A program made the translations under genes and the position numbers. From Heliocidaris erythrogramma (taxonomy: Eukaryota > Echinodermata > Echinoidea > Camarodonta > Echinometridae): a DNA stretch of 64,000 nt. The stretch lies in contig CM046858.1 in the NCBI GenBank assembly GCA_025617745.1, positions 49,179,197 to 49,243,196 of the forward strand, written 5' to 3'. Shown in pieces: positions 2,120 through 54,864 of this stretch. The stretch's first letter is position 1. Every line of letters starts with the position of its first letter. Below the pieces are notes generated by a model. The model was given only the letters and a program-made list of their open reading frames with translations, had not been told where the DNA came from and made no database searches.

Positions 2120-2271
2120 CTGGGCCCTGTATAAACACAAAGGTTTGCAATCACCTGCAAAATGGAAATGGCCAATCAAGATCATCATTGAATGCATGTA
2201 TTGTTCAAAACCAATCAGAATCGTTTCAAATTTGCAATCGATCACAAACCTTTGTGTTATGGGCGGCCCAG
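2120..2271. mobile_element. MITE-like inverted-repeat element, GGCCCTGTATAAA type
   Basis: The termini form an inverted repeat: CTGGGCCCTGTATAAACACA on the left pairs with TGTGTTATGGGCGGCCCAG on the right, and CAAAGGTTTG recurs as CAAACCTTTG. The end resembles that of the GGCCCTGTTTCAT elements at 20.3 and 23.3 kb. The interior holds CCAATCA motifs. The flanking triplets are CTG on the left and CAG on the right, which fits a CWG target only loosely. Confidence 0.6.
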
Positions 2272-2330
2272 ATTGGATAGTGGGTCACCAATCTATTTGA
2301 GGCTCAAAATGGAATAGGGTCATATCATGA

Positions 2331-2502
2331 TATCAACTGTTCAGAGACACAAGGGCATTAAATCATCTTATTTAACAGAGAGCTAATGCTGCTCTGGCTC
2401 TCAAGAGATGATATTGAATAATATCTGCAAGAAGGGCATTACCTCATATACTTTAACACAGCTACATGTGTATTAATGCCCTCCTGGATCTTCACAGATG
2501 GT
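2331..2502. repeat. Two diverged copies of the 80-85-bp hairpin repeat
   Basis: Two degenerate copies of a hairpin repeat lie head to tail at about 2,331-2,414 and 2,420-2,502. Each has an arm with AAGGGCATTA or a close variant, an A+T-rich loop, and a returning arm (GCTAATGC...CTGGCTCTC in the first, TTAATGCCCTCCTGG in the second). The best-preserved member is at 12,771-12,855. No coding potential is seen. Confidence 0.55.
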
Positions 2503-2747
2503 AAATGTCCAGACTTCAAACAAATATAGCAGAATGAGGGAATAAAATAGAGTAAAGAGAAAAGTAATCAAAATGGCATTTCCTCCTCCTCTTGGAATCA
2601 TCCAATTTAGATTCCAACCATCATCTCCCTCATCTCTAAATGATTTCTGATCGATTGCTATCTCCCAGCAGTCAACAAGGCCTTGGTCAATCCCATTTTA
2701 TCCTTTTCTCCCGCTGGAAATGATTTTGTAAACGCCTCAAGACATTG

Positions 2748-2799
2748 CATATTGTTTGTTTGGAGCCAGAAGGTTGTTAACTCGATGTAAATATATGAG
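2748..2799. repeat. Interrupted hairpin repeat (left arm and loop)
   Basis: TGTTTGGAGCCAGAAGG followed by GTTAACTC matches the left arm of the hairpin at 12,771-12,855, and ATATATGAGTTAAC matches the start of its right arm. At the TTAA of that arm the sequence changes to a piggyBac-like element end. The right remainder of the hairpin was not found downstream. Confidence 0.55.
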
Positions 2800-3020
2800 T
2801 TAACTCTTTCGAGACAATTGACCACATTTTGCGGTTTGGCTCAATAACTTTTGATTCAGAGCTCTAAAATATATACCAGATGCATGAGTAGAAAAAGCAA
2901 AAATTTCTGTACACAGATACACAAATATTATGCAATCATGCTGGCAAATTGCCCTTCTTTAGCATGTACACAAACGTTGCCAATTAGGACATAGGCCAGA
3001 TTTTTGCTCAGTGGATGAAA
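2800..3020. mobile_element. piggyBac-like MITE fragment (TTAA-CTCTTTCGAGACA end)
   Basis: Starting at TTAA, this matches the reverse complement of the right half of the element at 13,828-14,228. Shared blocks include TTTCGAGACA, ACTTTTGATTCAGAGC, ATATACCAGATG and GCAAAAATTTCTG. The other end is not visible, so this is a fragment or a strongly diverged copy. The end is of the TTAA-CCC type typical of piggyBac; the family assignment is inferred from termini only. Confidence 0.55.
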
Positions 3021-3059
3021 GATCTTATAAAGGATTTTTTTTTTTTGCTCAAATATATA

Positions 3060-5829
3060 CATGTGTATTTCATAAAATAATAGAAATATTTCTACTTTGA
3101 ATTTCACATGAAGCCATTCCAGGTGGAAAAAAGGAAAAATGAAATAAATTCACTTTTAATTTCCATTCATTCACATTCAAACTTGCTTCTTGTCCCTCCT
3201 CCCACGTTTTCGTTTCTATCTAGATCTTAACAATTTCTTTCGACCGTTCATTATACTAGCCATCTTACCCGTATCGCGATTTTTGAAATGGAGCGTTTAG
3301 TGCATAAACGTGTTTAAGATGTGGGATTTTTAGGCAGGAAAAACAGGATATAGTACAATTTTTTGGACTTTTTGTTGCTATGATGTACAGCACTGTGTAC
3401 AGCACTGTTGATTTCCTATGCGCGCGGAGAAGTTTATAATCGATTATGTTCATGATCGACTGTATGTGTTATGAAACAGTGTTTATTTTTACCTTTGACC
3501 CCAGTGATGACCCCAGTGACGTTTTAAAAAAAAAGCCAACCCCTTTGGTGAAGATCTGTCGAAGGATCTAGGAGGAGTAGGGGAACAAACAGACAGACAG
3601 ACAGACGAACAGACAGACAGACAGACGAACAGACAAACGGTTCTCGAATTATAGTATGATGATGATGATGTACCTCTACTTCTTACATGAGTCTTTTTCT
3701 CATTTTCATCTACTTCTTCTTCCCCTTCTGTTTCCCCTCCTGCTCCTCACCCACTTATCTCCTCATTCTTCTCTCTTTCCCCCTTTCCTATCTACATGTA
3801 CTTCTACTAATTCTCCATCTTTCATCATTTTCCGTATTATCCCTATTATAACACCCTGTCCTAGTCTTTTTATTCTTATTTTCTTCTCCTTTCTTGGTAA
3901 ATTTCCTTTTGTTTTTAAAGGGGAAAACCCCAAACTTCATTGGATGTAGATCTATGCATGTTGGGTGAGAGACGTTTCCAGTATCTTCTCCGCCATCTTC
4001 AAGTGGTTTACCGACGATGACATGTTTTCTCGATGAGATGCATGGCGACAGTTGTTGAAAAACAAATGTGTATAATGAAGCATGCGTCCATGACATTTCC
4101 TGGGCCAGTGGGATATCACATTGTTTTGTCTTACTCTTTTAACCCATAGCAGTTCAGTTTTCTTAAGGTCTCAATAAATAATCAGCCTTTCTCCTCAAAT
4201 TGGCATCAGTTATACATATTTTCCACTCCTACATATTTTAAAAAAAAATGAAAATATATATTAAATGAATCAATGTTAATTAAAATAATTAAAGTCAACA
4301 AAAATTACCAACATTTATATGAAAATAGTGATTACAAATTTCACATCGCATTGCCAACTTAGGGACTTTCATGATTAATTACAAAGAAATCATTTTTATT
4401 CATGAATGGCACAAAGTACTGCAATAGAAATAGACCGAAAAAAATTCTGTGATTAAAATTGCTCTTTCTGTTCACGTACATGTATAATGTGTAATTGCTA
4501 ATGTTCTGGATCACAACATATTTCAAAAACATCACTAACAGGAGACACTGAACTGTTATGGGTTAACCTCTACAATGCCTAACCAGAACTATGTCGGGGT
4601 GAGCATGCAATGTTTACCCAACAGATAGATATACAGATAATCCATGATGATTATGATCAAGTCAATTACACAATTTAGAACATGTGTATTTAATCGCCAT
4701 TAGGATGTTATAATATCAAGAAAATTAGGAGTGGAATGAGGGAAATTAGGAGTGGAATGAGGGAAATTACAAACATGCAAAGAAATAAACATGGAAAGAG
4801 AATGAAATCATCATTTACCTATATGTATACATGTAGGCAGGGAGAAGAAAGTACAGCTACATGCATGTATTGGAATGTGCTAGAAAGCAATAACAAATTG
4901 GATACCGCAACCAGTAGCGACTATGAAGAAAAATACTTTGTCAAGCAATATCATGCAAGAAATTCAAATGCCACAAATAGCATTTAGAAGGCATCAAATA
5001 GTTTAATAGTGTCAGAAAAGGGAGAAAAGTCAACCTAACTAGACTATTTTTTTATATTCTTCACACACAAACAGAATTGTACTAAGAGAGTTGAAATAAT
5101 CATGAAAATTTCATGAAAAATCTTCTTCTTACGTTAGTGCTGCTTCAATGTCTGAAGATAACCCAAGAGCAGGTGTGAAACCCTCTAGCGTATTCTTTAT
5201 TTTTCTACTGATCATCATGTCATCGAAGCATTTGAACAATGAGACATAAATGACTGATTTCTTTGCTCAAATATGACAGGCAGGCAATCAGACAGCAATG
5301 TTTTGATAATGGGTGATGTGGAAAAGAACAATCGATCAGAAATCACAAAGCACCTGCACAGTTTCCCCCGGTCAGTAACCCAACAGGAAAATTATTATTC
5401 CACCGTTGGGAACACCACCAATACAGGTGAACTTCCTGGAATAACGCTTGTCTCGGCACGAAGATGGTATTGGGTACACACAGTACAGAAAGCAGTGAAA
5501 AACATACTAAGGCGCTGTCAAGGAATGGCTGTGGACAGCTGCAAAAGAGCTCTTGTAAAAAAAAAAAACACCATTAAATTTAATACTTACAAATCACTGC
5601 ATGGAAAACTCAGTTTTACAATTGAAAGCCTCTATAAAGTTCCTGTGAACTAAACAATATTTGTTATGCTCATGTAAGGTTTCAACCACTCCTCCATAAT
5701 GCTGGATATTACTTATTGATGTTCCTAACTGATGTATGAGAAATTTAATCAATGAAATCAATTTATTTTTCTATTTTCTATTTATTCTTCCCCTAATTCT
5801 CTTTTTGTTATTCCTAGGCTTAGCACAAA
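3060..5829. other. Non-coding stretch with microsatellites
   Basis: No gene is recognised. It contains an (ACAG)n tetranucleotide repeat at 3,586-3,640 with regular GAAC interruptions, following a TGACCCC-rich tract that looks like an old repeat 3' end. Pyrimidine-rich sequence runs at 3,680-3,800. A 22-base unit containing GGAGTGGAATGAGGGAAATT is repeated twice at about 4,720-4,768. An open frame of 126 codons at 5,273-5,653 (plus) resembles nothing I know. Confidence 0.5.
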
Positions 5830-6115
5830 GTGGGGGGAGGGAACCTTCGCTCATGCTGGGCCTTCAATATGGAATACTCTCCCTCAAGGGATTAGAAATA
5901 TCAGTTCTGTTATTAAAAGTGTTCAAAAATAATCTTAAAAAGTATCTGTTTAATTTGGTCTATAATTGATTACCACTACCTTTCATGTCCGTACCTCTCC
6001 TATTGCACTTTTGCTTATTTGTCATGTAATTCATCTTTTGCACAAGTTGCGGCTTGAGCAATTTTGATCATCAAATGGATTTGGCGCCTTATAAATCTTA
6101 TATATTATTATTATA
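5828..6115 (+). mobile_element. LINE 3' end remnant (C-terminus of ORF2 plus tail)
   Basis: The translation across two frames reads TFAHAGPSIWNTLPQGIRN then, after a frame change, FKNNLKKYLFN. This is the typical extreme C-terminus of CR1/L2/RTE-type LINE reverse transcriptase proteins (W-N-x-L-P ... F-K-x-x-L-K-x-x-L-F). The sequence after it (TTGAGCAATTTTGATCATCA, then GGCGCCTTATAAATC and ATTATTATTAT) resembles the 3' UTR and short-repeat tail of such elements. The copy is 5'-truncated and frameshifted, so it is inactive. The clade cannot be fixed without database comparison. Confidence 0.65.
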
Positions 6116-6116
6116 C

Positions 6117-6137
6117 TATTCTCTCTTTCTTTCTTTC

Positions 6138-6168
<31 letters not shown>

Positions 6169-6172
6169 CTTC
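6117..6172. repeat. (TTTC)n microsatellite
   Basis: A run of TTTC units with a few TCTC interruptions directly follows the LINE tail. The pyrimidine-rich composition continues to about 6,310, which explains the serine/leucine/phenylalanine-rich open frames there. Confidence 0.85.
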
Positions 6173-6312
6173 TCTTATTTTCTTCCTTTTCTCTTTCCTT
6201 TTCTTATTTTCTTCCACTTCTTTTCTCTTTTTCTCATTTGATTCCTCCACTGTTCCCTTTTATTCAAAGCTTTCCTCTCCCACTTTCCTTTCAATTTTCC
6301 AATCATTTCTGA

Positions 6313-7494
6313 TTGAATCTCATCCTTTCCCAACCTCATCCATTGTTGACCATCATATTTCTTTAATAGTATGGGAGGAGAAATGTCATATCATGGGCCA
6401 GAGTAGAGACATAAACCTACTTCACCATATCATATCCTACTCCACTTCACTACCAAAGAACTATCATCATTTCTTTTTGCCCTAACCTCCCTCCAACCAA
6501 GCACATGTAGCCTTCCACCGGAGCAATTTAGCTGATGAAAACGAAGAAGGCGGATCGCATCAGGGCAAACTAAATCAACTCTGTTATGCTCAAGAGACCG
6601 GCCCCCAAACTATATTTACAATTCCGCAAACGATGCTGGCATATTGATAATAGATTCCACCAAGGTAATGGAATGGGATGGAATAGACGTGCATGGTGTA
6701 CTACAAGCATATCTCCCTTTCCACGTAGCCGGACATGTTGAATACTCCTACTTTGTTCCTAAAAGAGTGCACCTTTTTCAGTCAGATCAGAGGGTTTTCC
6801 CAGGTGTCCTGCTGAAGAGTTCAAATACCTAGCTGTGATTTCTTTTTTAATCTTGCGGGCGATATACAGTAATGGTATTTTAAAAAGGAAACAAAAATGC
6901 CTTACAGCACTGACGGCTCAGGCCAGTATTGACCTACATGTAGAATAAGTTACTACTTTTGTAAGAATTATAACTAGTAACATACAGATTGGTTTGCTGT
7001 TACATAGCCTACATTAAGCAGGTCTGAGTAATTTTTACATATACATTTCTATAGGCCTACAAAACAGGTACATAACAATTTCCCTCATCACTGTTACAAT
7101 CCAATTTTCTGCAATTTTCTAGAAGGACACTGGCATTTCAAAGTTTAGACCTTATGTTATCATATGAAATGTGGCTTTGCTGGTTTAACATTTTTTTCCT
7201 AACTACATAATCATTTCTAACCACTGTAACAATACAAAGACTTTACTAAAATATCGGCCGTTTCATCAAAATGCATTTTTTTTTTCATCAAAAAGTTTGT
7301 CAAATAGTGAATTTCGAGTAGTGACATAAAAGAATATTCTTTATACCTAAGTGCAATTTTTATTGTACTTTGTTTCATTTTGAAGCAAATGGAAACAAAC
7401 TGAAGGTGAAATAAACTTGGTATATTTGCACAGTTGGAGCTCCCTGGAGTTAACATTCAACCTGACTAACAGGAACTACATGTACAGCCTACAC
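6313..7494. other. Non-coding stretch, nothing recognised
   Basis: I see no gene, RNA gene or transposon end. Open frames are below 80 codons and do not resemble known proteins. Confidence 0.45.
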
Positions 7495-7669
7495 CAGGGG
7501 GGTGTTTCATAAAGCTGTTTGTAAGTTACGCACAACTTTACGCACGACTGGTGATCAGTTCTTGTGCTAAATGATTGAGAATCTGATTAGTATAGCACCC
7601 AAGAACATGTTCCAGTCCTTCATAAAGTCATTCATAACTTTACGAACAGCTTTATGAAACACCACCCAG
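7495..7669. mobile_element. MITE with CAG target duplication, GTGTTTCATAAAGC ends
   Basis: A 169-bp element (7,498-7,666) has inverted ends: GGGGGTGTTTCATAAAGCTG on the left and CAGCTTTATGAAACACCACC on the right. Both sides carry CAG directly (7,495-7,497 and 7,667-7,669), read as a 3-bp target-site duplication. It encodes nothing. Its end shares the TGTTTCATAAA signature with the elements at 20.3 and 23.3 kb. An (AGT)n run follows at 7,749-7,767. Confidence 0.75.
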
Positions 7670-7769
7670 TATCCCAGTAAATCATTACCCATTAAGACTA
7701 TTAAAAGGATTGTTACCCCTAGCCTTGCACTGTGGGTGCCCAGCCCAGTAGTAGTAGTAGTAGTAGTGA

Positions 7770-9392
7770 TTGACCTTAAATGCCCTCTGTGAACTCTTGT
7801 CAGGTCACTCCTGGCTGGGTTTTCTGAAGCACAATTGTACCTCTGTATTATGCCTGGATGCAGGGTATGCAGTTTAATCCTCCTCTGTGGTTAAATCTCA
7901 CAATTGTAATATGATATCATTCAGCTGTGTTACATGTATCAATTAAGAAGTTTGATTTGATATGTAATATGATATTATTCAGGTCGTGTGAATAGTATCA
8001 AAAGGTACATGTATGGTACGATTCGCATGCTGAGGGCCAGAAGGGCTTTAAGTCAAGGTTTTGGATACACTTCACCTGCGATACATGTATCAAAAGTATG
8101 GAAGGGTATGAATACAGTTTGTCAGCTACAAGGGCCAGAATGAGTCAAGTCCTTCTCATTCTTAATAGCAAACACATTTATTCACCCATTTATTAATCCA
8201 AAACAGTAACATTTCACTGTGATTCATGCACGAAACTCACCTGGATTGTAATTCCCCCCCCCCTTTTTTTGTCCTTTTAGAAGAAAGCTATTTTCATTTT
8301 CCAATGTCCCTGATGTGTGAATAATGCATATTGTATTGTATGTAAATCATACTGAAAAGTTCATTGGACTGGACTATCATCAAGCATTAAGAAGATAAAA
8401 TATATTTGTGGATTTCTCCTTTTCCTTCTTTGATATTAATGTCCGAGTGCTTTTTTTTGCAGGAAAGTAAGTGAAAATCAATTTAGCATTCACAAAGCAA
8501 CTGCAGTCTTAATCAAAGGATTCCACAAGGATTCCTCAGTTCAATGTACAATGTAATAGCTAACATGGAGTCCTACACATGCAGGTCTATACGATAAAGG
8601 TCAAATGAACTGTATAAACGTACTTTTAGAACTCTTTACTAATTACAAATGACTTTTGAAGCATCTACACATCTGCTGCTTCACTGTGCACAAGCAGATC
8701 TTAATCACGCACTAAGCATCATTAGCATGAAACCTCCTTCGTTCGTTGTACGTCACGGTGCACTAATCAGAATAAAAGTAGAAGTCATGTTCCGCAACTT
8801 CTGTCACCGATGCAGGAAGTCCAATCAATTGACCAATTTTTCCCTTGATTGGCGAACCATTTCCGTAGAGATATTTAGTTCATACAAATGCTGGCTGGCA
8901 CCTGTTCTAGCAAGTGTAATACAATAGTTTCCTTCCACACTTAAATAGGACATATGTGGTTTTTTTTCTTTCTTTTCAGCTTGGAATATAAAGCAGATTT
9001 GGTCACAGAAAGCCTTTGCATTTAGGGAAATATATGCCTACATTCCTATAGATGTAAAGGTAAGTGTATTTCCATTTTACTAGTACAGTGTGTGCCTTCA
9101 AAGTCTTGTGCGGTTAATCTGTCTGCTCTTGCTTATTTCACCAGTATTTGACTTAACATCTTCAGAAAAAAAACAATGAGGCACATATGTTAATCCATTG
9201 GTTTTAATATGTTTTTGGTATCACAAACTTTCCAAACACATGGACTCTAGCTCAAGATATTTCATGCTTTGCATGAATAGCATGCATTCAACAGGTTAAT
9301 ATAATACTGAAAAATTACTTTTCTATAATTTAAACATTTAAATATCCAGATTTTCTTTTTCCATGCTGTACACTACTCAGCCTCTTTCCAAC
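7770..9392. other. Non-coding stretch, nothing recognised
   Basis: No gene or clear element is seen. GGCCAGAAGGGCTTTAA at about 8,035-8,052 resembles one arm of the hairpin repeat, but no pairing arm follows. TACATGTA palindromes are frequent. Confidence 0.4.
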
Positions 9393-9607
9393 TACTGTAA
9401 ACGTGGAATATTTCACGGTATGTGGAAATTTTCACGCATTTCGCGCAGCATGAAATGTACGTGAAAATAAAAACGTGCAAATATTTTTGTTTATGTATTC
9501 TTTTGCCCATGAGCCTAGCGCATCGGTGAAATTAAAAACAAGCGAAATTCACTTTACTCAGCCGAGCGCGAAATATTAATCACGCGAAAATTTCCATTTT
9601 TACAGTA
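9393..9607. mobile_element. MITE-like element, TACTGTAAA ends
   Basis: The ends are inverted: TACTGTAAACGTGGAA on the left and TTCCATTTTTACAGTA on the right. The interior carries GCGAAA/TTTCGCG and GTGAAA motifs on both strands. The ends start with TA, which suggests a TA target as in Tc1/mariner-type MITEs. A more diverged relative lies at 18,927-19,128. No coding capacity. Confidence 0.65.
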
Positions 9608-9707
9608 CACCAGGATCAATACGTAATCATGGTAATAGAGCATTAACAATTCTCAAACTACTTCAGTCAATTCAACAGCATCTCTTATCCCAGGGAGAAT
9701 CTTACCC

Positions 9708-10183
9708 CACGTTCAGACTACCAAAACTCATCGTATAGCTATATGAGAACCGTATCTACAGCTATACGACAAGCAATTGTTCTTATCTAGTCTGAACGTT
9801 GTATAACAAAACGTTTAAAAACACTTTGTATCACAAAGTGTCGCATATAAAAATTGATGTCTGAGCATCGTTTCTAAGGAAAACTAAGTAAAGAATCAGC
9901 ATCCACTTGTAGTCTGAACATCGCATCGTACAAAAAAGTTGTAAACTGGGTGGGGCTCATCATGACCAATCAGCTGTAATTTTGCACGCTCCAGCACTGC
10001 CCATGGCGAAACCTGACACTACAAACGTATGGTGTCAGCTGACCTCCCAAAAACTTGTGTCTTTATAAAGATGATTCTTCATACGATATTTTTTTAAAGT
10101 AACCCGTTTCGCTTTAGGATGATTCTTTGTCCGATGTTTCTTTATACGACTTTGGTATAAATTTCCTGTCGTCTGAACAGGCC
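9708..10183. mobile_element. Inverted-repeat element with GTTCAGAC ends
   Basis: The left end ACGTTCAGACTACC pairs with GTCGTCTGAACAGG on the right. The same motif recurs inside (TAGTCTGAACGTTG near 9,779; GTAGTCTGAACATCG near 9,910), as do CGTATA-rich segments on both strands. This fits a non-autonomous DNA transposon. Target duplications are not clear. Confidence 0.45.
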
Positions 10184-10623
10184 ATTATCGGAAGCCGGAA
10201 CAGCAGCAGCAGGCTAGTCTAAAACCACATCTTGAGCTAGAATTCATGAGGCTGCATAATTGGTGAAACACAGAGTGACAGCACTCTGACAAGCTGAAAA
10301 AAGATGTGGTTTGTGAATAGACAAGTTTGGCATATAGTGAAACAAAGGGAATACAGCATCTTCCGAATGTACGAGTATCCCTATCAAGTATCATTACCAA
10401 GCATTGAGGGAGTAAATCTAGTGATGATAAAAATTAAAAAACTTTATCTCTGTATTAAAAGTGTCATTTTATTTGATGATCAATCATCGTAATGAAGCAC
10501 TAAAAATGGTTGAAGATCATTACTAGACAACCAGTATAATTCATTTTATTATGCGTGCTGTAGAAAGATATTAACAAGTCAATTCCAAAAAGAACAAAAT
10601 ATAAGGAATTCCTTTAAGTTTTA

Positions 10624-11446
10624 TATACACTAAAGGGAAAAAGAAACTTATAAAAGTTCAAGAGATCACCAAATTAAATTCTCTGCATGGAAATGTACCA
10701 AATTTGGATATAATGTTGATTCAATGCATGGCTTTAAATGACAGTCAATAACAAAAAGTTTTCTTCAATGCCACAAAAGAAATGTGCACTGAAACAAAGG
10801 ACTCTCTAATCCCAAAGTCACAAAGACAAACTGCAGCCTTGTACACCATATGCATGTCAATGAATGATACAAAAGAATTTCAAAAGGGATTTGCAAGTTC
10901 ATATCCAAACAGATTAATAGCCAGTATGTCCACCTCTAGCTTGCTGGCAAGCTGTACACCGTCTTCGCATGCTTCCGATCAGATTCGCGATGGTAGCCTG
11001 GGGAACATTGTTCCATTCCTCTTGCAGTGCTGCAATGAGCGTCTCCCTATTGATGGGTTGATTGTCACGCCTTGACACACGTCGACCAAGCTCTTCCCAG
11101 AGATGTTCAATTGGGGAAAGGTCTGGTGAACGGGCGAACCATGGCAGAACATCAATATCCTCTTGCTCGAGGGGTGCAAATCCCTTTTGAAATTCTTTTG
11201 TTTCATTCATTGACATGCATATGGTGTACAAGACTGCAGTTTATCTTTGTGACTTTGGGATTAGAGAGTCCTTTGTTTCAGTGCACATTTCTTTTGTGGC
11301 ATTGAAGAAAACTTTTTGTTATTGACTGTCATTTAAAGCCATGCATTGAATCAACATTATATCCAAATTTGGTACATTTCCATGCAGAGAATTTAATTTG
11401 GTGATCTCTTGAACTTTTATAAGTTTCTTTTTTCCTTTAGTGTATA
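10624..11446. mobile_element. Tc1-like transposon with ~270-bp terminal inverted repeats, internally deleted
   Basis: The element starts TATACACTAAAGGGAAAAAG and ends with the inverted CTTTTTTCCTTTAGTGTATA, so a TA target is likely. The inverted repeats run to about 10,893 on the left and from about 11,175 on the right, roughly 270 bp each with few mismatches. The ~280-bp centre holds only the C-terminal part of a Tc1-type transposase on the minus strand. An autonomous relative would be ~1.6 kb or more, so this is a deletion derivative. Confidence 0.85.
10914..11174 (-). pseudogene. Tc1/mariner-type transposase, C-terminal fragment
   Basis: About 86 residues of a DDE transposase C-terminus are encoded on the minus strand. 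The core WFARSPDLSPIEHLWEELG matches the Tc1 signature around the third catalytic acidic residue (the E of PIEHLW). The downstream helical tail with NRETLIAALQEEWNNVP is also typical of Tc1 proteins. The DNA-binding domain and the two catalytic aspartates are missing. Upstream the open frame runs into the terminal inverted repeat and gains an ATG only by chance at 11,231. The fragment cannot be catalytic. Known of the family: these enzymes cut and paste DNA at TA dinucleotides. Confidence 0.85.
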
Positions 11447-12706
11447 TTTTCTGCTTAATTTCTTGCTCTCCTTCTGGAGATTTACTCTTTATACACACTC
11501 ACACAAATTCCTTCTCAATTTACATAGACCAATATAAAGAAATATTTCTGATAAGCTCAAAGAGAAGCTTATTCTGGAAGTTCCAAAACTGAACCAATGC
11601 ATCACCAAAGCAGTGATGTTCAAGCTAGAATGACAAATTGAATATCATATTACACAGAAGAGGAAAATATGGGACAGAGACGTGACATCTTTGCACCTGG
11701 AAAGGTACATGTGCTTGTACTCATAATATTAAATTACTCTTCACAAACAGTAATGTTGTTAAATATTATGTTTAGAGTGAGATGACAAACTAAATTCCTA
11801 TACTCTTTATGAATGAATCTTTGAAATATAATACGCAGGTGGCGTTCAGCCCCTCAATAACTTGATATGGCCATCAAAGTAAAGTGAAAAAGTGAGTAAC
11901 TAAATCAAGAAGAGCATATCAATTATAGTAGCCAAACAACTCAACACTTTCACACGAGACGTAGCCCTACAAATATATCTACGATCATACAAAAAGATTC
12001 ATTCTACAGCAAACACTGAATTCATAATGTGAAGAACAGTTTTGGAGACTAGTTTTTGAAGACTAGTTGCCACTGACAGTGCGAACACCCCCTGGCATGT
12101 GACAATCGATGTGTATTTTAACGAAAGGTGGGAGGAACATGAACATGGAAAGCGTGATGACTGGATGCATCCCCCCCCCCCTCAACTCAAGAGCCTTCAC
12201 TTTATACAGAAGGTACATGTAGTTCAAAGAGAGCCACTTTTACTCATCTCGTGCTTCCTCTTCTGCTCTATGTAGTCCAAATTTTGGAGAAAGGTGAAAG
12301 GGCATGTTGCTTTGCTGGGCAAGCACACACAACAAAAGCATGTGTTATGTTGTGTCCCACTGATACCAAAAGACAAACTCTGTGTATAGATGGCTCTACC
12401 CAATCTTAGGCCCTCTTGAACCTTCCTCATCATCATTAACATTCTCTGAGGGCATCCTCCGACGACGACTACTACTGCACTCTGATCATCCTCCTCCTAC
12501 AACATTTTGATTATTCTCACATCTTCCCATACAAGTCACACCTTTGAACACAATGCACCTTACTTCATAAGCTCTACATCTACATGTACGAATATGAATG
12601 TATGTACTTGAGTATCAATGTGAATATGACAATGTCATGATGTTTTGTTCCAAGTAATTTCATTTCATTATGATGTCATCACTGACGCTCTGAATCTCAT
12701 CGTTTT
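11447..12706. other. Non-coding stretch, nothing recognised
   Basis: No gene or element boundary is seen. A short poly-C run lies at about 12,171-12,181. Confidence 0.45.
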
Positions 12707-12760: not shown

Positions 12761-12770
12761 ACATAAGACA

Positions 12771-20275: not shown

Positions 20276-20423
20276 CAGGGCCCTGTTTCATAAACTTCAA
20301 TAACAACTGCCTCATTTCTATGACAAATTTGCTCTCAGCCAATCAGATTCAAGGATTTCAGTAGCTTATAACACTTTATTGAAACTTGTTATTCATATCA
20401 AGTTTTTATGAAACAGGGCCTAG
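20276..20423. mobile_element. MITE with CAG/TAG target, GGCCCTGTTTCATAAA ends, copy 1
   Basis: A 142-bp element (20,279-20,420) has ends GGCCCTGTTTCATAAACTT and AAGTTTTTATGAAACAGGGCC in inverted orientation. CAG precedes it and TAG follows, consistent with a CAG duplication with one later change. The core (GACAAATTTGCTCTCAGCC, CAATCAGATT, GGATTTCAGTAGCTTATAAC) is shared with 23,280-23,419 and with the GGGAGCGTTTCAT elements at 31.9, 47.6 and 54.7 kb. Confidence 0.8.
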
Positions 20424-22917: not shown

Positions 22918-23044
22918 CTGGACCCTCTTGCATAAAAAGTTGCAATTAAACGCAGCTCAACAAATTTAACGCATGTCCAAAATGCGCGATCCTGATTGGT
23001 TGAAAATCAAGATTAAACGCAACCTTTTATGCAAGAGGGCCCTG
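22918..23044. mobile_element. MITE with CTG target duplication, GCCCTCTTGCATAAAA ends
   Basis: A 121-bp element (22,921-23,041) has ends GACCCTCTTGCATAAAAAG and CCTTTTATGCAAGAGGGCC in inverted orientation, with TTAAACGC/TTAAACGCAACC just inside. CTG flanks both sides (22,918-22,920 and 23,042-23,044). The centre contains CTGATTGGTTGAAAATC, the same CCAAT-type motif found in the other CAG/CTG-flanked elements. Confidence 0.8.
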
Positions 23045-23276: not shown

Positions 23277-23422
23277 CAGGGCCCTGTTTCATTAAACTTT
23301 ATAAGGACTGCCTCATTTCTATGACAAATTTGCTCTCAGCCAATCAGATTCAAGGATTTCAGTAGCTTATAACACTTACTGTAACTTGTTATTGATAACA
23401 AGTTTTATGAAATGGGGCCCAG
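23277..23422. mobile_element. MITE with CAG target duplication, GGCCCTGTTTCAT ends, copy 2
   Basis: A 140-bp element (23,280-23,419) starts GGCCCTGTTTCATTAAACTT and ends AAGTTTTATGAAATGGGGCC, with CAG on both sides (23,277-23,279; 23,420-23,422). The core is almost identical to that of 20,279-20,420. It stops 4 bp before the TTAA of the next element. Confidence 0.8.
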
Positions 23423-31949: not shown

Positions 31950-32091
31950 CTGGGGAGCGTTTCATCAAGCGTTTTGTAAGTGATTTTTACTGACAAATTT
32001 GCTCTCAGCCAATCAGATGCCAGGATTTCAGTAGCTTATAACAGTTGTCGGTAAAAATCACCGACAGAATGCTTGATGAAACGCTCGCCTG
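31950..32091. mobile_element. MITE with CTG target duplication, GGGAGCGTTTCATCAAGCG ends, copy 1
   Basis: A 136-bp element (31,953-32,088) starts GGGAGCGTTTCATCAAGCG and ends GCTTGATGAAACGCTCGC, flanked by CTG on both sides. The internal AGTGATTTTTAC/GTAAAAATCACC also pairs. The core TGACAAATTTGCTCTCAGCC and GATTTCAGTAGCTTATAAC is shared with the GGCCCTGTTTCAT family. Confidence 0.85.
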
Positions 32092-34198: not shown

Positions 34199-34199
34199 T

Positions 34200-45919: not shown

Positions 45920-45997
45920 CCTGCTGAGAGACAAAAGGGCTTTAACTCTATGTTAAAATGTATCAGTTAACATCCTTCTAGCGCTCATCAGCCAGCA
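45920..45997. repeat. Hairpin repeat copy
   Basis: CTGCTGAGAGACAAAAGGGC, TTTAACTC, an A+T-rich loop, then CAGTTAACATCCTTCTAGCG and CTCATCAGCCAG form the arms. It is a diverged member of the 12,771-12,855 family, with several changes that keep pairing. Confidence 0.6.
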
Positions 45998-46074
45998 CGC
46001 GACATGATAGATCAACAGGGTGATATCTTCAGTCTTTAAGAGGACAGGTAGAAGAAGAAAACATGATACAAAAC

Positions 46075-46777: not shown

Positions 46778-46815
46778 CAGGGGAGCATTTCATCAAGCGT
46801 TTTGGTCAGTGTCGA
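46778..46815. mobile_element. Solo left end of a GGGAGCGTTTCAT MITE
   Basis: CAG followed by GGGAGCATTTCATCAAGCG and TTTTGGTCAGTG matches the left end of the elements at 31.9 and 47.6 kb, then the similarity stops. The rest of the element is deleted. The preceding CAG fits the target preference of the family. Confidence 0.65.
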
Positions 46816-47052
46816 CAAGGCCCCTATCCTCTTCCAATGTGCCTTACATTGTACATACATGTAATTACAAATTTATTGATGTACATGTACCGTACATCAA
46901 AGTCTGATGTCTCACTTGTCACACCATAGCATTTTAATACAGGCAATGTGCATCACGCAATGTACTGTACAGGAGAATGATCATTGTTTGCAAACTAATA
47001 AACAGCCTCAATCATGCATGCCTGCATGCACACAAGGGTACAATCGCCGCAT

Positions 47053-47467
47053 GTAAACATGAAAATCCTGTTTTTGACAGTACTTAGCGGTTGAAATGAA
47101 ATGAAAGTCAATAAAACATAATATTTGATTTGATGTTCAAGTATATTTGTACAGTGTCAAGCTTTAAATTTTATTCCAAAAGCAAAATTTCCGACTTCAA
47201 ACTACAAAACCCCCAAAAATAATAACATGGGGGTTTTTTTCCTGTCATGCAGAAACATTCCGAATGTAAACATCATTCCTGTTTTTGACAGTACAGTGGG
47301 TGAAATGAAATGAAAATCAATAAAAAGTAATATTTGATTTAATGTTCAAGTATATTTGTACAGTGTAAAGCTTTAAATTTTATTCCAAATGCAGAAATTT
47401 CCCAGACTTCAAACTACAAAAACGAACAAATATTAACATGTTTTTTTCTTGTCATTCAGGAACGACA
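47053..47467. repeat. Tandem duplication, ~210-bp unit, two copies
   Basis: The unit runs from ATGTAAACAT through CCTGTTTTTGACAGTAC, TTCAAGTATATTTGTACAGTG and AAGCTTTAAATTTTATTCC to CTTGTCATxCAG. The second copy starts at about 47,262. The two copies remain highly similar, so the duplication is fairly young. It is non-coding. Confidence 0.85.
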
Positions 47468-47573
47468 ACTACATGTAGTACAAGTACAGGTACAGGTAGT
47501 AATTAATCAATTGATTTAATTGCTGTCAACTCTAGCCATCATAGATGTACATGTACATGTATGATAACAATTC

Positions 47574-47715
47574 CTGGGGAGCGTTTCATCAAGCGTTTTG
47601 TCAGTGATTTTTACCCACAATTGTTATAAGCTACTGAAATCCTTGAATCTGATTGGCTGAGAACAAATTTGTCAGTAAATATCACTGACAAAATGCTTGA
47701 TGAAACGCTCCCCTG
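47574..47715. mobile_element. MITE with CTG target duplication, GGGAGCGTTTCATCAAGCG ends, copy 2
   Basis: A 136-bp element (47,577-47,712) starts GGGAGCGTTTCATCAAGCG and ends GCTTGATGAAACGCTCCC, with CTG on both sides (47,574-47,576; 47,713-47,715). The core is in reverse orientation relative to 31,953-32,088 (GTTATAAGCTACTGAAATCC, CTGATTGGCTGAG). Confidence 0.85.
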
Positions 47716-48476
47716 ATTCTCCCAAATCAACTTGTATCATTTTACAATTTCCATGTACTAGTATGTGATGCATGACAGATACACACTGTACTAAATTTTG
47801 CACTTGCATGGGTTTTTGCATAATACATGTTACACAATGTACATGTGGTAGGCCTACATGTATAACCTACAGTACTGCATACTTTCCTGGAGCTTTCATA
47901 TTGAATTTTCTCTTCCTTCATGATATCAGGATACCAATCAATTTCAGCTGACCCTTATTTATTGCAGGCCTTCCCCCGAGTATACAGAATAAAATTCCTG
48001 AATGGCCCAGCCAACATCAGACATCTATGTACAGACTCCACGTTCATTCGTTACCAAGCAACCAAATCCAAGCATCCTTAGATCATATGAAAATTTTCAT
48101 CATCTTTGTAACTCGTTCATATGTAGGCTCTATGTACAGTGGTCCACTCCTGCCTAGCTTCCAGCGAAGGTTTTTAAATTAGTTTTCTATGCAATGAAAT
48201 GGGTAGGGTTACAGTATGAAAACATCATTTCTTTTTTTCTGGAGACACAGAGGACAGAGAGAAGATAGGTAACCTGAACTGTCATTGCCTTGGGTCAATG
48301 GCTGGAGATGTTCAACATTCTGTTTATATAAATTCTATGAATCCTTCAGCAAGATATCTATGTAGTCTGAGGAGAGACAGACCCAATGAATTACAAGGAG
48401 GAATACTTAGAATCAGCAGTCAATTTTGGGTGGTTTTGTACTAATAATGTACACTACATATGTTCACAGTAAATAC
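47716..48476. other. Non-coding stretch, nothing recognised
   Basis: No gene, RNA gene or element end is seen. Confidence 0.4.
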
Positions 48477-48764
48477 ATAATAATAATATGTCCATTTATA
48501 TAGCGCAGCTACTATACAAATATACTCAGCTGCGCTTAATACAAAGTATCACATTATTACCCCGGCATTAGCCGAGCTGCCATGATAGGCGCTAAAGCAT
48601 TCAAGGAATTTCTTCCTAACGGGTACCCATTTACTTCACCTGGGTGGAGAGTGGCAAATGTAGATGAATGTCTTGCCAAAGGACATTAGCGCCGCGGCGG
48701 GATTCGAACCGCGAACCATGTGATCCACAGTCCGGTGACGTATCCACTAGACCATGACACCTCT
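48477..48764 (-). mobile_element. tRNA-derived SINE, copy 2 (more complete)
   Basis: On the minus strand the head reads GTGTCATGGTCTAGTGGATA, followed by a CCGGACTGTGGATC anticodon-like arm and a B-box GGTTCGAATCC. The body with CACCCAGGTGAAGTAAATGG on the minus strand is shared with the copy at 37,619-37,890. The 3' end is GCGCTATATAAATGGACATA then ATTATTATTAT. The full length is about 288 bp, with no clear target duplication seen. Confidence 0.82.
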
Positions 48765-51495
48765 ACATGTACAAGTAGTTCAAAAAATGGGTTGATAAAA
48801 AAAGAAAATTAAAAAGTGAACTCAAAAAAGCATGGCAAAAGCAATTTGAATGCAGCAGTAGCACCAATTTGAAGCTAAAAAAAAGGCTTTCAAAATGTCT
48901 TTCATGCATGGAAAATCAGCTGAGCATGGACTTATAAATGATATCTTTCAAGACCTGCATATACTTACATGTATTTGCTGCAAATGAATTGCAAATTACT
49001 TATTGGTAACCATTTCATGGACACATACATGTACCTTTAAGGCCTGTCAAAAGCCTCCCATAAACACATACGTACATGTACTTCATTTCAATTTCTCCTC
49101 CGTCAGAGCAAGGAATAAGTTTATCATGTCTTCAAGCTAAGACTACCCTATTGGGGCATCAAAAACTTTGGTGGGATGCACTTGCAAGATTACAAGAGGG
49201 GCAACGTTTCACACCCATCCTATTTGGAACCAGGCAGTTCCAGGTGTAATGAACTTTCAAGCTGGGAACCCCATCTTGTCATGAGCGCTAGCCTTAGCCA
49301 AGGGCGATTCTGGGCAAGCAAGGGGTTTTCATTACGGATCTCAGCGCATATTGACAGGGATCCATGTCACAAGTAAGGATCAAATGAGCTGCTCAATTTT
49401 ACCACGGAGGTAGGAGGACTGTTCCAAGTGTTCAACACTCCTTCTCAATTCTTTGTATTTTTCTCAGACAAGATGGCTAAATACAGTATATTGCAATACA
49501 CAGCCATAGTACATGTATGTATTAAAGTCTGTGACAGAGTCAAAACAAACAGAGCACATCACGACCTACAGGTACCCTACTCTGATTACTTTCCAGATAT
49601 ATCTTTTTATTTGCATGGTGAGCAAAATGCGGATACATTTTTAGTTGCAGTACGATTCGACATTGTGTAGATAGTTTGAATAACACACAATCAAGATATT
49701 TTTATGTATCTACCATAATTATATACATGTACATGTATAGTACCTACCTAGTGTAAATAAAATGTGTACCAGTAAGCTAAGCTACATTGTAAAGGGTAAA
49801 AAAATCAAATCTTTTAACTTTTGGGCAACATTTAAGCATTCTCAGCATTTTTTCTTTTTAGCTCTCTCTCTCTCTTTCTCTATTTTTTCCCTATCTCGCA
49901 ACATTACTAACATATTATTTAGGCCTATGTAAAGGGAAATAATGTCTTATTTGATCAAATGTGACTATTTTCCTGTTCATTCTATCATGAGCTCCTTTGT
50001 TTACATGGCTGACTTAACATTAGTCAATAAACAAAAAAAGTCTGTCATAAACAAGACACATGGATGAGTGGTTTCAAAGAGGGAGACAGGTTAGTCTTCA
50101 TGGCAGACCTTCCAGGGCAAGAATAAACAAAAGCGATGAAGCAAACTATAAATTAATTCTCTTCAGGAACCTACACACAAATGTGAGAAATTACATACAT
50201 TGTACATATATACATGTACATTGTTTTCAAATAATTAATGTATAATTATGCCTTTATTAATGGGCATCGTCACACTCATACAATGCACATTTTGCTAATT
50301 ATGGCCAGCATACACATTATACATACAAGTTCTCCTGACAAAGGGGTGGATCTCTTCATTTGACTGAGCACATTGTATTTGTAGGCCTACATACATACAA
50401 TGCAGTTGAATTTTAAATGTGTAGAATACAAGCAATCATATACAGGTTCCTCATAGGCCTTCTTGTTGAAAAGAACAAGAGAACTGCATCAAAATCATTT
50501 TCACTCATTCAAACTCAAAGCAAAGAGAAGCAAAGAGAAGCAAGGAATCTCAAACCATCTCAGCTGAGTCTGCGTGGAAGACTAATTATGGCAGGTGTTA
50601 TCTCCTACTCCTGAGAGGGGCTGAGTGATCACTTTGCTTAGTAAAATCTTTGTTTACTTTTGAGCTTTAGAGATCTTTAGGGTATAATTAATTGCCTTTA
50701 TCTTGTACAGAGAAAGAAGGATGTGGCAAGCACAAGTGTGAAATAAATGAATCTCAGACAATGTCAATTTTTTAGAACTAGATCAGACTTCAAGTCATAC
50801 ATCTGTGGTCACAATGAGTTTGTAAATGTACATGTTCTATATTTTTATTGGCCTAAATTTTACAGTACTCGCATTCTCCTCTCTGCATTTGTACAATGCG
50901 AACATTACATTACAAGTCGAAAACACTCATTCATATATATGGAGATAAATTTGGTGAGGTGGTCTGCATCATGCATGCATTAATCTCTCTTTCTTTCAAG
51001 TCTCATCATAAATTTCACAATCATTCACACAGATCATTCATATTTAGTCATTTTAGAAAGACTATGATTACGGTGGGAGTCAATCTTCAATATCGGATTT
51101 GTACATGTACCTAAATTTAAGAGTAAAATCAAATATAAATAATTCATATAGGTTCTAATCTACTACGCATGTCATGAAAATATAGGTCGAAGTGCTGTTT
51201 GCCTTTTATTTAGTTTTCCATTTGTCAGTGTTTGTAATTTCTCTCTCTCTCTCTCTCTCTTCACCTGCTCTTTGTCTCTTTTCTTTTCTTTTTACCTTTT
51301 GCTACAGAAATGTAAATGCTCTTTAAAGAGAGCAGACAATTTAGATCTTCAGTAGATCTAGATCTACTGACGTGACTACATTCGTCTCAAAACAAATTAA
51401 CAAAACTCAAAAGGATTAAGTTTGTTCTAATTCATTTATCTGAAGGCAGCTTATAAAAATTAAAATAGTAAATAACTTGCAATGTGGATACTTAC
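48765..51495. other. Non-coding stretch, probably intronic
   Basis: No gene is recognised. A (CT)n run lies at 51,241-51,262. This lies immediately downstream of the donor of the minus-strand exon at 51,496-51,766 and should therefore be the start of that gene's intron. I could not find its next exon anywhere in 1-51,495. Confidence 0.5.
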
Positions 51496-51766
51496 GAACT
51501 CTCACGGATCTAGCATCCAGTTTCTCCACAAAATCCTCCAATTTTATAATCCTCCTTCTCAAAAGAACTGTTCTGTGTGCAAGCAAATGAGCTTCACTAC
51601 TGATGTCGCTGAAAATGTCATTTGCACGGAGCGACAGGTCGGAGAGCTGCCGGACCAGTCCGCATAGCGTATTGTTTGAGACCGTATCCAACTCACGGTC
51701 GCAGCCAGGAGGCAAAGGACTGTTGCTCAAAAACTGAGGCTCGATAACTCGCTTGATGAACGGCAT
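51496..51766 (-). CDS. First coding exon of a WAVE-homology-domain protein (NHS/GUKH or WASF family)
   Basis: The exon encodes about 90 residues from the ATG at 51,764-51,766 to a consensus GTAAGT donor (acttac at 51,490-51,495 on the plus strand), ending in phase 1. The protein starts MPFIKRVIEPQFL, then ELDTVSN, LVRQLSDLS and ANDIF, and ends near EKLDARSVRV. This is the order of the WAVE homology domain: M-P-x-x-K-R-x-x-E-P start, then R-Q-L-S-x-L-S-x-x-A-x-D-I-F, then a heptad-like helix ending in L-D. WASF/WAVE proteins activate Arp2/3 through this domain, which joins the ABI/CYFIP/NAP complex. NHS/GUKH proteins carry the same domain. MPF.KR..EPQ.L leans to NHS and ELD.V.N.TL is equally good for WAVE, so the family is left open. 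No further exon was found. The reading frame past the donor is intron. Confidence 0.8.
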
Positions 51767-53342
51767 GATGGAGGTTGTTAGACTTATTCCGATCCAAAGA
51801 CGTTATGTGCTGATAACTGATGACTGAATAAAATCCAATTTAGATAAAAATCCACATCAAGAGAAGCTTTACATCACTATTATCCATGGTTATGTATTGC
51901 AATCGACTCTGGATTTCGTATCAAACCCTCCATTCAGTGAATGCATGCGCTATGCTAGCTAGCATATCTCGTTCGAATATCCCTGCCGCGCCATCAGGCC
52001 CACCACACACTCAGTGGTATACACATGAAATGGTCACACACAAAAATATACGTTGATATTTTACTCGTAAATGCAAATGTGCGCTGGCTCGCGCTCAGCT
52101 ACGAAGTCCGAGGGATCGTGAGAGTTTTTGAAAGAAAGGGGGGCAGACCCACCCCCATTGTGGGACAAACGGGACAAAAGCGACATAATGCCTCCATTAT
52201 TATTATACGAGATTCTTTTCCAACTGCAGACATTTTCGCGTTATAAACAAATATAATGTAAGATAGATGTAAGAGATTAGATATTAGGCATTATGTTCTG
52301 TACTAGCTCTTGGTTGAATCATTTGAAAGATTGTGTATGAGCAGGGACTCTTCCACCTCCCTGGTATGATCGAGGGAAGAGATGAAGACATTTTTCAAAT
52401 TTGGAATAACCTGTAAATATGTAAATATGATAAGTACATACATGTAGTATAGATCGTGACATACAATTATACATATTTGCCTTGTGCTAGTACTTTATAA
52501 ATATCCTTGAGGATTGATTTTTATATATTGTCAAAGAATTTTGATGTGATGACAAAGCACCCCGATCACTTTTGGGGGTTTTTTTTTGTATTGTCAGAGA
52601 ATAATCGTTTTTGTGTCAACCCCTCCCCCACCCCCACTCCCTTCCTTGTCAGAGAATCCTGGATCTGTCCCTATTTATAGAACTGAGTGTATAATGTAAT
52701 CAAATCTATCCTATACGATTCTCTAATTCAGGTAGCAGTAGATTACGTGTCATTATAAATGCATTGTAGAAAGAGCATGGCCTGGGCGTTGCCGGGGATT
52801 TCCCCTTTGAGCGCGTAAGTTAATTATACGCGCAATCTTAATACCCTGGATCAACGGAAGCGCTGGCCCTGAAAATGCATAATTTATCATTTTGGTCGAT
52901 ATCAATTTTACAGCATTAACAAATCAAAGGATCACTCATCCAAGTTGTGAGGGTACAAGTATGTGTCCTCTCCTCCGTTTCATCATGTATTTTGTAGATT
53001 TGTTAATCATTGTTTTGAGATTCTAGTCCAGGGCCTAGACTCCTAATAAGCAATGCCAGAAAATGGCTCTCAAAGAAAGTAAATGATTGTATCCAGCAAG
53101 AAAATAAAGACAATGCATGGATGTAATATATAAAAATTGCAAAAATAACCCCCCAAAAATGAAAATAGCTGTTTAGGAATTATATTATTTTATTGTTAGT
53201 GAAATCTTAGAAAGTCGTACAGTAGGTATTAAATAGAAATTTATATGATCTTTTAATGGACGATTTACATTTTTATTTCAAATTACCCCTTTATACGTAG
53301 ACCTAATTTCTCTGCAAAACACAAGATCTGTTTCATCATTTC
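51767..53342. other. Upstream region of the WHD gene; non-coding
   Basis: This holds the 5' leader and presumably the promoter of the minus-strand gene starting at 51,766. I see no TATA box at a sensible distance. Modest CpG content near 51,980-52,100 is compatible with a TATA-less promoter. No other gene is recognised to 53,342. Confidence 0.4.
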
Positions 53343-53372
53343 TGGTAATGATGATGACGGTGGTGGTGGTGA

Positions 53373-53404
<32 letters not shown>

Positions 53405-53556
53405 TTGGTGGTGGTCTGGTAATAGTGGTGGTGGTGGTGGTGGTGGTGGTGGTGATGATGATGATGATGATGGTGGTGATGATGATGATGATGATGATGG
53501 TAATGGTGGTGGTGGTGGTAGTGGTGGTGGTGGTGGTGTTAGTAATGACGTCAGCT
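53343..53556. repeat. (GGT/GAT)n trinucleotide microsatellite, ~210 bp
   Basis: Blocks of GGT and GAT alternate over about 210 bases, followed by a poly-C run at 53,561-53,575. The strand bias makes a threonine/isoleucine/proline-rich minus-strand frame that is not a gene. Confidence 0.95.
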
Positions 53557-53613
53557 ATCACCCCCCCCCCCCCCCTGATTACAGTGACCCTATAAAAGAG
53601 AAGTAGGCTACCA

Positions 53614-53832
53614 GTGATTGATCGGGGGGAACGTGCCCGAACTCTTGTCAAAGGTGGGTTTTTTTATTATAGGCCTACATGCCCGTTAAATTTTGATAAT
53701 CTTTTCCCTTTTTTTCTCTCTTGCTTGTCAGAATTCGGAGGTGCCTCCCCGAGGAAAATGAACCTGCATCCGTCAATTATTATGGATGGTAAACATTTTG
53801 ATCCTGAGAGTCATGCAGAGTTGAATTGTTGA
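53614..53832 (+). CDS. Candidate small gene end: two exons or one 72-codon frame
   Basis: A plus-strand frame runs from ATG at 53,614 to TGA at 53,830-53,832. Within it, TCAAAG/GTGGGT at 53,653-53,654 looks like a donor. A strong pyrimidine tract ending in CAG at 53,729-53,731 looks like an acceptor. The implied intron is 78 bp, a multiple of three, so both spliced and unspliced forms stay open. The last part reads EFGGASPRKMNLHPSIIMDG and is balanced in composition. AATAAA at about 53,875 could serve as poly(A) signal. I do not recognise the protein. It may be a terminal exon of a gene whose earlier exons are elsewhere, or chance. Confidence 0.3.
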   Translation: MIDRGERARTLVKGGFFYYRPTCPLNFDNLFPFFLSCLSEFGGASPRKMNLHPSIIMDGKHFDPESHAELNC

Positions 53833-53899
53833 TCTTGGATTAGAATGTAAGAAAAAAACATCCCTGAAAGTTTGAATAAAAGTGGGAAATGTTTCGTAA

Positions 53900-54482
53900 G
53901 GAAAATATTAATGCTCTCATGTTCAATCAGAATGATAAGAACTAAGTTTATACCATCGTACTATGACCATTTATTATTGATAACATATTAAACTGAAGGA
54001 GTAATTTCAAAGGTGTCATGTCCCACTCCCATATAATTTTTGCGACCAGTTTATTCTCACAATTTTCCCTCCAAAAATAATAAACATATAAACTTGCATT
54101 TTCAAAAGTCAAATATAGAACCTTTCATCATACATAGCGCCGACATATAGAACCAAAGCAATAAACAGAATATTTGTATATAAGCTGGTATTATGTCAAA
54201 ACAAATAAAAAAGGCTCTATAGTTTTGGGTTGTAACATTTGAAAGGGACACACGTCTTCTGTGTGTATAGTAAGGGAAATTCCCATTGTATTTTATGGGG
54301 CACAGGCCAATTATTATTAAAGAGTGTCTTGTTGATTAAATGAGCCTGCAAGGACTGCAAGGACCCCTTCCCGCCCCCCCCCCCCCTTAAAAAAAAGGGC
54401 GACGCAAGAGCGAGGTGCAGGGGTTTCCACTCACCACAATTCAACATTTCTATTGTTATATCTCGAGGAGGAGCTTTTTCTT

Positions 54483-54487
<5 letters not shown>
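53900..54487. other. Non-coding stretch with poly-C run
   Basis: No gene is recognised. A poly-C run lies at about 54,375-54,387. The long minus-strand frame 54,217-54,741 crosses the (TA)n tract and the Penelope end and is not a gene. Confidence 0.4.

Positions 54488-54554
<67 letters not shown>
54485..54554. repeat. (TG)n(TA)n microsatellite at the Penelope left edge
   Basis: Seven TG units pass into about 29 TA units and stop exactly where the inverted Penelope copy begins (GACAAAATAGG). The element probably inserted into, or expanded, a TA repeat. Confidence 0.9.
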
Positions 54555-54558
<4 letters not shown>

Positions 54559-54589
54559 AAATAGGAATGAAAAGTCCGTATACGATGAA

Positions 54590-54623
54590 AAAATTCGAAT
54601 TTTCGGCCATAGGCCTTCATCAG
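54590..54623 (-). ncRNA. Hammerhead-ribozyme-like motif, left arm
   Basis: This is the inverted twin of the motif at 59,550-59,583: CTGATGA, a GGCC/GGCC stem with a TAT loop, GAAA, then the self-complementary AATTCGAATT, read on the minus strand. See the right-arm entry for interpretation. Confidence 0.5.
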
Positions 54624-54723
54624 GAAATGATGAAAATTTATTAGATAGGTACACAAAAGAGCGTGAAGCGCAAAAAAAACAACGCAAAAGCTCCATGGAT
54701 ACCAGCGCAACCATGGTAGAGAT

Positions 54724-54864
54724 CAGGGAGCGTTTCATCAAGCGTTTTGTCAGTGATTTTCACCGACAACTGTTATAAGCTACTGAAATCCTTGCATCTG
54801 ATTGGTTGAAGGCAAATTTGTCGGTGAAAATCACTGACAAAACTCTTGATGAAACGCTCCCCAG
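54724..54864. mobile_element. MITE with CAG target duplication nested in the Penelope left arm
   Basis: A 135-bp element (54,727-54,861) starts GGAGCGTTTCATCAAGCG and ends CTTGATGAAACGCTCCC, with CAG at 54,724-54,726 and 54,862-54,864. It belongs with 31,953-32,088 and 47,577-47,712. The corresponding site in the right arm (59,447-59,449) is empty and has a single CTG (CAG on the other strand), which directly proves the 3-bp duplication. Confidence 0.92.

What the first reader, a model, noticed from the sequence alone, without database searches (positions are those of the whole stretch)
2120..54864. A guild of short inverted-repeat elements that all duplicate CAG/CTG
Seven insertions with four different terminal sequences carry CAG or CTG at their borders: 7,498 (CAG/CAG), 20,279 (CAG/TAG), 22,921 (CTG/CTG), 23,280 (CAG/CAG), 31,953 (CTG/CTG), 47,577 (CTG/CTG) and 54,727 (CAG/CAG). 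A solo end at 46,781 also follows CAG. Three-base CWG duplication differs from the TWA of PIF/Harbinger and from TA or TTAA. A single unseen transposase with a CWG target could drive several MITE families.
Basis: partly seen in the sequence, partly recalled or inferred. Interest (0 to 1): 0.75.

Follow-up and report, generated by a model that had tools for sequence, protein, structure and literature searches.

The report
CWG-targeting Harbinger-type (NuwaI) mini-transposons
The short inverted-repeat elements are real and look like a known kind of jumping gene that copies a CAG or CTG triplet when it lands; unusually, in about a third of the copies examined the two flanking triplets disagree at the middle base, which hints that a piece of the old site may travel with the element.

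Summary
The seven elements are present and 13 of 14 flanks read CAG or CTG. In the whole 1.06-Gb genome the F4 end has 6,723 exact copies, 5,697 (84.7%) of them after CWG, against about 3% by chance. Paralogous empty sites for four copies show a true 3-bp duplication.

CWG is not new: it defines the NuwaI group of the PHIS (PIF/Harbinger) superfamily, and zebrafish Harbinger3_DR targets a palindrome centred on CWG. The "four different" ends share one core. Transposases are present elsewhere in the genome: two elements with DDE_Tnp_4 and Myb/SANT ORFs lie between CWG-flanked ends. Upstream of 38 further related transposase genes, 24 show such an end (22 after CWG, 2 after CCG) on the sense strand, 0 on the antisense. 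One is identical to F1 over 28 bp. So a clade of transposases, not one, is the likely driver.

Unexplained: in 33 of 100 copies with CWG on both sides, W differs between sides, unrelated to copy divergence in F4. I favour piggyBac-like carry-over of the donor's 5'-CWG overhang (about 40%). Verdict: new members of a known kind, with one testable oddity.

The parts
7498..7666 (+). F1 MITE, ends GGGGGTGTTTCATAAAGCTG, flanks CAG/CAG
   Evidence: genome search scored 40 of 1593 candidates
20279..20420 (+). F2 MITE, ends GGCCCTGTTTCATAAA, flanks CAG/TAG
22921..23041 (+). F3 MITE, ends GRCCCTCTTGCATAAAA, flanks CTG/CTG
   Evidence: genome-wide search did not complete
23280..23419 (+). second F2 MITE copy, flanks CAG/CAG
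31953..32088 (+). F4 MITE, ends GGGAGCGTTTCATCAAGCGTTTTG, flanks CTG/CTG
46781..46811 (+). solo F4-like end after CAG; no right end of its own found
47577..47712 (-). F4 MITE, flanks CTG/CTG
54726..54861 (-). F4 MITE, flanks CA(G)/CAG, inserted in one arm of a Penelope-like element
59370..59527 (-). paralogous empty site of the 54726 insertion: single CAG
   Evidence: 98.75% identity to the joined flanks
2123..2268 (+). candidate diverged element (F5), ends GGCCCTGTATAA.. / GGCCGCCCATAA.., flanks CTG/CAG
   Evidence: weak, TIR imperfect at its outer part

Best explanation
The elements are non-autonomous MITEs of the NuwaI type (PHIS/Harbinger superfamily). SHOWN: 3-bp CWG duplication, TIRs starting GG, a weakly palindromic target AYCWGRT, and longer relatives in the same genome that encode a Harbinger-type DDE transposase and a Myb/SANT protein between CWG-flanked ends. 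INFERRED: transposases of this clade recognise the shared core near the ends, cut the element out, and join it to a staggered CWG target. INFERRED and less certain: the excised element keeps a 5'-CWG overhang from the donor that pairs with the 3-nt gap at the new CWG site (C and G pair, W may mismatch), so one of the two final triplets can come from the donor; this would give the W disagreement seen in a third of copies. The stated confidence is for NuwaI-type MITEs; the carry-over step I put at about 0.4.
For: Genome-wide CWG at 5,697 of 6,723 exact F4 ends. Empty sites with a single CWG for window 54726 (98.75% identity), L116 (78%), L120 (76%) and L075 (84%). Outward target logo of 61 F4 copies: CWG, then A 43% or G 41%, then T 62%, against 28.5%, 21.0% and 27.1% in window CWG contexts. 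L057:1651-4342 (CAG/CAG) with DDE_Tnp_4 (E 2.5e-35) and Myb_DNA-bind_5 (E 1e-11); L055:1342-4420 has both domains, its transposase split over two frames. Transposase search: 118 matches, 11 of them full-length at 97-100% identity. End predicted upstream of 38 transposase loci: 24 sense, 0 antisense, 0 reversed. Family link: L198 end identical over 28 bases to the F1 copy of L005 (the window copy's left arm differs at one of these); N2 ends match F4 at 38 of 48 against at most 24 of 48 for the other five groups; L184 37 of 48. W differs between sides in 18 of 61 F4, 6 of 23 F1, 5 of 9 F2, 3 of 6 N0 copies and in L055; W stays A or T in 145 of 148 F4 flanks, and discordance is unrelated to divergence (p=0.99).
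Against: F4's own autonomous partner was not found exactly (best 38 of 48); none was assigned to F2 or F3. In 14 of 38 transposase loci the end was not found at one substitution; two of these, L135 and L201, have it at two, L185 has the end without CWG, and L141 has GGGCCGTATGCATAAAA after CAA. The 24 positives are not independent: many are copies of the same family (for example five of N1). L025's F3-like copy lacks CWG. The two complete-looking elements are 2.7 and 3.1 kb, shorter than the published NuwaI mean of ~4.5 kb. Against carry-over: mPing given TCA donor flanks made 45 of 46 insertions at TWA and 1 at TCA (PMC4561436 section 8). No clade test with published NuwaI transposases was possible.
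Confidence: 0.9

Rival explanations
1. One single, unseen transposase with a new CWG target drives all families.
For: F1, F2 and F4 share the end core and the CWG target.
Against: Several transposase lineages (42-68% identity to L057 for N1, N2, N2b, N3 and N4) sit next to their own variants of the end; the CWG target is published for NuwaI.
Confidence: 0.05
2. No duplication: elements that begin GGGG and end CCCC insert between the Ws of CWWG, as Spy inserts in AAATTT; CATG and CTAG targets would then look discordant.
For: Explains W disagreement without extra steps.
Against: Empty sites of four copies carry one CWG, not CWWG; the L028 pair CTG/CAG lies in a repeat whose empty copy has CAG. 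Three of the four empty sites are only 76-84% identical.
Confidence: 0.02
3. W disagreement comes after insertion: mutation, or recombination or gene conversion between copies.
For: Thousands of near-identical ends exist. Exchange between copies would also leave only A or T at W. The highest rate is in the older F2 (5 of 9), though n is small.
Against: Within F4, discordance is unrelated to divergence; C and G of the triplet are kept in 139 and 143 of 148 flanks, so simple mutation looks too slow; the low-copy N0 family shows it too (3 of 6), again with small n.
Confidence: 0.3

Closest known systems
NuwaI group, PHIS (PIF/Harbinger) superfamily (PMC4482050)
   Same: CWG duplication, TIR 12-61 bp usually starting GGG, DDE transposase plus Myb/SANT ORF, animals
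   Different: The two elements seen here are shorter (2.7 and 3.1 kb); several families start GGC; MITE numbers far higher (6,723 exact F4 ends against 3,845 NuwaI copies counted in that study, which says MITEs might be missed); W discordance is not mentioned in the passages and section that I read
Harbinger3_DR of zebrafish (PMC3016246, passage; the original paper, PMC2290759, is not held)
   Same: Palindromic target centred on CWG
   Different: Longer target consensus AAACACCWGGTCTTT; here mainly AYCWGRT
mPing/Ping (Tourist, PIF/Harbinger)
   Same: MITE moved by a two-protein Harbinger system, 3-bp duplication, extended target preference (PMC2836001, passages)
   Different: TWA target; almost no donor carry-over in the published test (1 of 46)
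piggyBac
   Same: Proposed analogy only: excised ends carry a four-nt target-site overhang (PMC7351741, passages)
   Different: TTAA target; relation of ends and transposase not tested here

Membership tests
NuwaI | CWG target site duplication, confirmed by paralogous empty sites | tested here: met
   F4 and F1 by empty sites; F4 genome-wide; F2 24 of 38 flanks; F3 not tabulated
NuwaI | DDE (Harbinger-type) transposase in autonomous relatives | tested here: met
   DDE_Tnp_4 in L057 and L055
NuwaI | Second ORF with Myb/SANT domain | tested here: met
   Myb_DNA-bind_5 in L057 and L055; not tested for N1-N3 and L198
NuwaI | TIR 12-61 bp, usually beginning GGG | tested here: met
   F4 arms 44-45 bp beginning GGG; F1, N1, N2, N3 begin GGG; F2, N0, N4 begin GGC
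NuwaI | Transposase clusters with published NuwaI sequences | not testable with these tools
   no reference NuwaI sequence held; PDB search gave 0 matches
PIF/Harbinger sensu stricto | TWA duplication | tested here: not met
Spy | No duplication, AAATTT target | tested here: not met
Pangu | ANT duplication | tested here: not met
piggyBac | TTAA duplication | tested here: not met

The most novel reading that the evidence does not exclude
NuwaI elements transpose with a donor-derived 5'-CWG overhang that is annealed and ligated into the new target gap, in the manner of piggyBac's TTAA overhang. The two flanking triplets of a copy would then record one base of its donor site and one of its target, so thousands of genomic copies would form a fossil record of the reaction.
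Probability: 0.4. Interest if true: 0.65.

Novelty: new member of a known kind. Interest (0 to 1): 0.42.

Why it matters
It places an abundant MITE guild in a named group, links one family (F1) to a transposase-bearing relative by an identical end, and shows several transposase lineages sharing one target. If the W discordance arises at insertion, it is a readable trace of how Harbinger-type transposons fill the target gap.

Tried and rejected
Rejected: no-duplication model (empty sites); TWA, TA, TTAA targets; one-transposase model; mutation alone as cause of W discordance. Led nowhere: solo ends L020 and L036 as autonomous copies; around the other transposase genes fetched first (L039-L054, L056, L058, L059, L061-L063) no pair of CWG-flanked F-like ends was found within the 1.5 to 3.5 kb at hand, only a stray end CAG|GGCATCGTTTCATCAAACG in L046; transposase traces in the window (tblastn, none at E 1); PDB relatives (none). 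F3 genome-wide: not completed. Literature on natural mismatched duplications: one search listed 2 papers, neither on NuwaI; one search found 58 papers for looser terms, 15 listed, one of them read in passages and one section. This is an open-access library and not proof of absence.

Rows dropped before the count of 100: copies without CWG on both sides (F4 13 of 74, F1 2 of 25, F2 10 of 19, N0 1 of 7). L082, a further F4 copy with CAG/CTG, was missed by the mismatch limit and seen; it is not counted. Window copies of F2, F3 and F5 are not counted. F4 copies came from contig C1 in order (1.4 to 26.3 Mb) plus the window; F1 and F2 from best-scoring matches. N0: 9 copies tried by predicted ends, both ends found in 5, one of these with a right flank lacking a C; with L057 and L060 this leaves 6.
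Full report
OBSERVATION. The window lies at G000:C6:49179197-49243196 of an unnamed 1.06-Gb, 26-contig genome. The seven elements and the solo end are present. Thirteen of 14 flanks read CWG, the 14th TAG; CWG makes up 2.7% of triplets in the window. In a strict scan for CWG-flanked pairs of 14-base ends with at most 4 mismatches, 3 of the elements passed in the window and 1 chance pair appeared in the reversed window, so the window alone is suggestive and the genome is decisive.

GENOME. The 24-base F4 end occurs 6,723 times exactly (3,352 + 3,371; control 0); 5,697 of these follow CWG. In 74 distinct two-ended copies 134 of 148 flanks are CWG. F1: 26 rows, two flanks read CCG and the rest CWG. 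F2, 89-92% identical to the query: 24 of 38 flanks. F3 was not tabulated; the one F3-like copy met, L025:238-375, has TCG and GAA.

A TRUE 3-BP DUPLICATION. The MITE at 54726 sits in one arm of an inverted repeat; the other arm (59370-59527, 98.75% identical to the joined flanks) has a single CAG. L116 and L120 (F1) have paralogs with a single CTG (78% and 76% identity), L075 (F4) with a single CAG (84%). This rejects insertion between the Ws of CWWG.

TRANSPOSASES. DDE_Tnp_4 (PF13359) gave 150 matches, the 150 scored of 581 candidates. L057 holds a 2,692-bp element, CAG/CAG, with a 343-aa DDE_Tnp_4 protein and a Myb_DNA-bind_5 ORF; L055 a 3,079-bp element, CAG/CTG, with both domains, its transposase split over two frames. 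In both the end lies about 200 bp upstream of the transposase ORF. I used this as a prediction on 38 further transposase loci (18, 20). At one substitution 24 show the end on the sense strand (22 after CWG, L128 and L131 after CCG), 0 on the antisense strand, 0 in the reversed sequence; random 450-bp pieces of the window, which itself holds MITEs, match in 7.4%, the reversed window in 0. The 24 are not independent, since many are copies of one family. The ends fall in groups: N1 GGGAGGATTTCACTAAGG, N2 GGGGGCGTTTCATGAAAC, N2b GGGGGTGTTTCATCAAAG, N3 GGGTCCGTTGCATAAAAC, N4 GGCCCATGTGCATAAAAG, and further ones. L198 begins with the first 28 bases of F1 as in L005; whether the L198 element is complete was not tested. 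N2 agrees with F4 at 38 of 48 positions and L184 at 37 of 48, against at most 24 of 48 for the other groups.

W DISCORDANCE. With CWG on both sides, the middle base differs in 18 of 61 F4, 6 of 23 F1 (one duplicated region merged), 5 of 9 F2, 3 of 6 N0 including L057 and L060 and in L055: 33 of 100. One search lists 7 more F4 pairs outside the fetched set, 4 of them discordant by my reading of the list. An earlier pooled set (27 of 80, which includes those 7) gave P = 3e-7 against 12% and P = 0.002 against 50%; 12% is my own generous bound for mutation, not a measured rate. In F4, discordance is unrelated to divergence (p = 0.99), and W stays A or T in 145 of 148 flanks. In L028 the pair is CTG/CAG while the paralogous empty site (93% identity) has CAG, so one side differs from the target.

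MECHANISM. Published work on mPing infers a staggered cut across the 3-bp duplication (PMC4561436, passages). By my inference the excised element would then bear a 3-nt 5' overhang of donor flank. If it pairs with the new CWG gap, C and G match and W may not. piggyBac opens its hairpins to leave a four-nt TTAA overhang (PMC7351741, passages). mPing with TCA flanks showed almost no carry-over (1 of 46; section 8 of PMC4561436), so this step is a hypothesis for NuwaI. Exchange between copies remains a live rival.

KNOWN OR NEW. NuwaI is defined by CWG duplications, with TIR 12-61 bp usually GGG and DDE plus Myb/SANT ORFs, in 16 animal genomes (PMC4482050, passages and section 7). The features that I could test are met; clade membership of the transposase was not testable.

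Noticed in passing
window 54600-59530: Probably a Penelope-like element (recalled from its parts): inverted arms (54862-56265 and 58057-59449, 98.65% identical), a weak RVT_1 match (56241-57503, below Pfam's cut-off) and a GIY-YIG domain (57407-58621). One arm carries the F4 MITE.
   Followed up: partly
window 20279-20420, 23280-23419, 31953-32088, 47577-47712, 54726-54861: F2 and F4 have different ends but share a core of about 45 bp (TTTGCTCTCAGCCAATCAGATTCAAGGATTTCAGTAGCTTATAACA), as if ends were exchanged between MITE families.
   Followed up: no
L046, L050, L056, L062, L141: Another transposase clade has ends GGGCCGTATGCATAAAA with flanks ATT, AAT or CAA, perhaps Pangu-like (ANT).
   Followed up: no
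G000:C8:48859122-48883202: Eight transposase matches of the N3 group at a regular 3,393-bp spacing, a tandem array of an element or its surroundings.
   Followed up: no
L185-L189: N2-type copies whose transposase match ends near residue 62 with a stop inside: a repeated deletion derivative between MITE and full element.
   Followed up: no
window 10623-11447: Inverted repeat with 273-bp arms, 99% complementary, 279 bp between; not of the CWG type.
   Followed up: no
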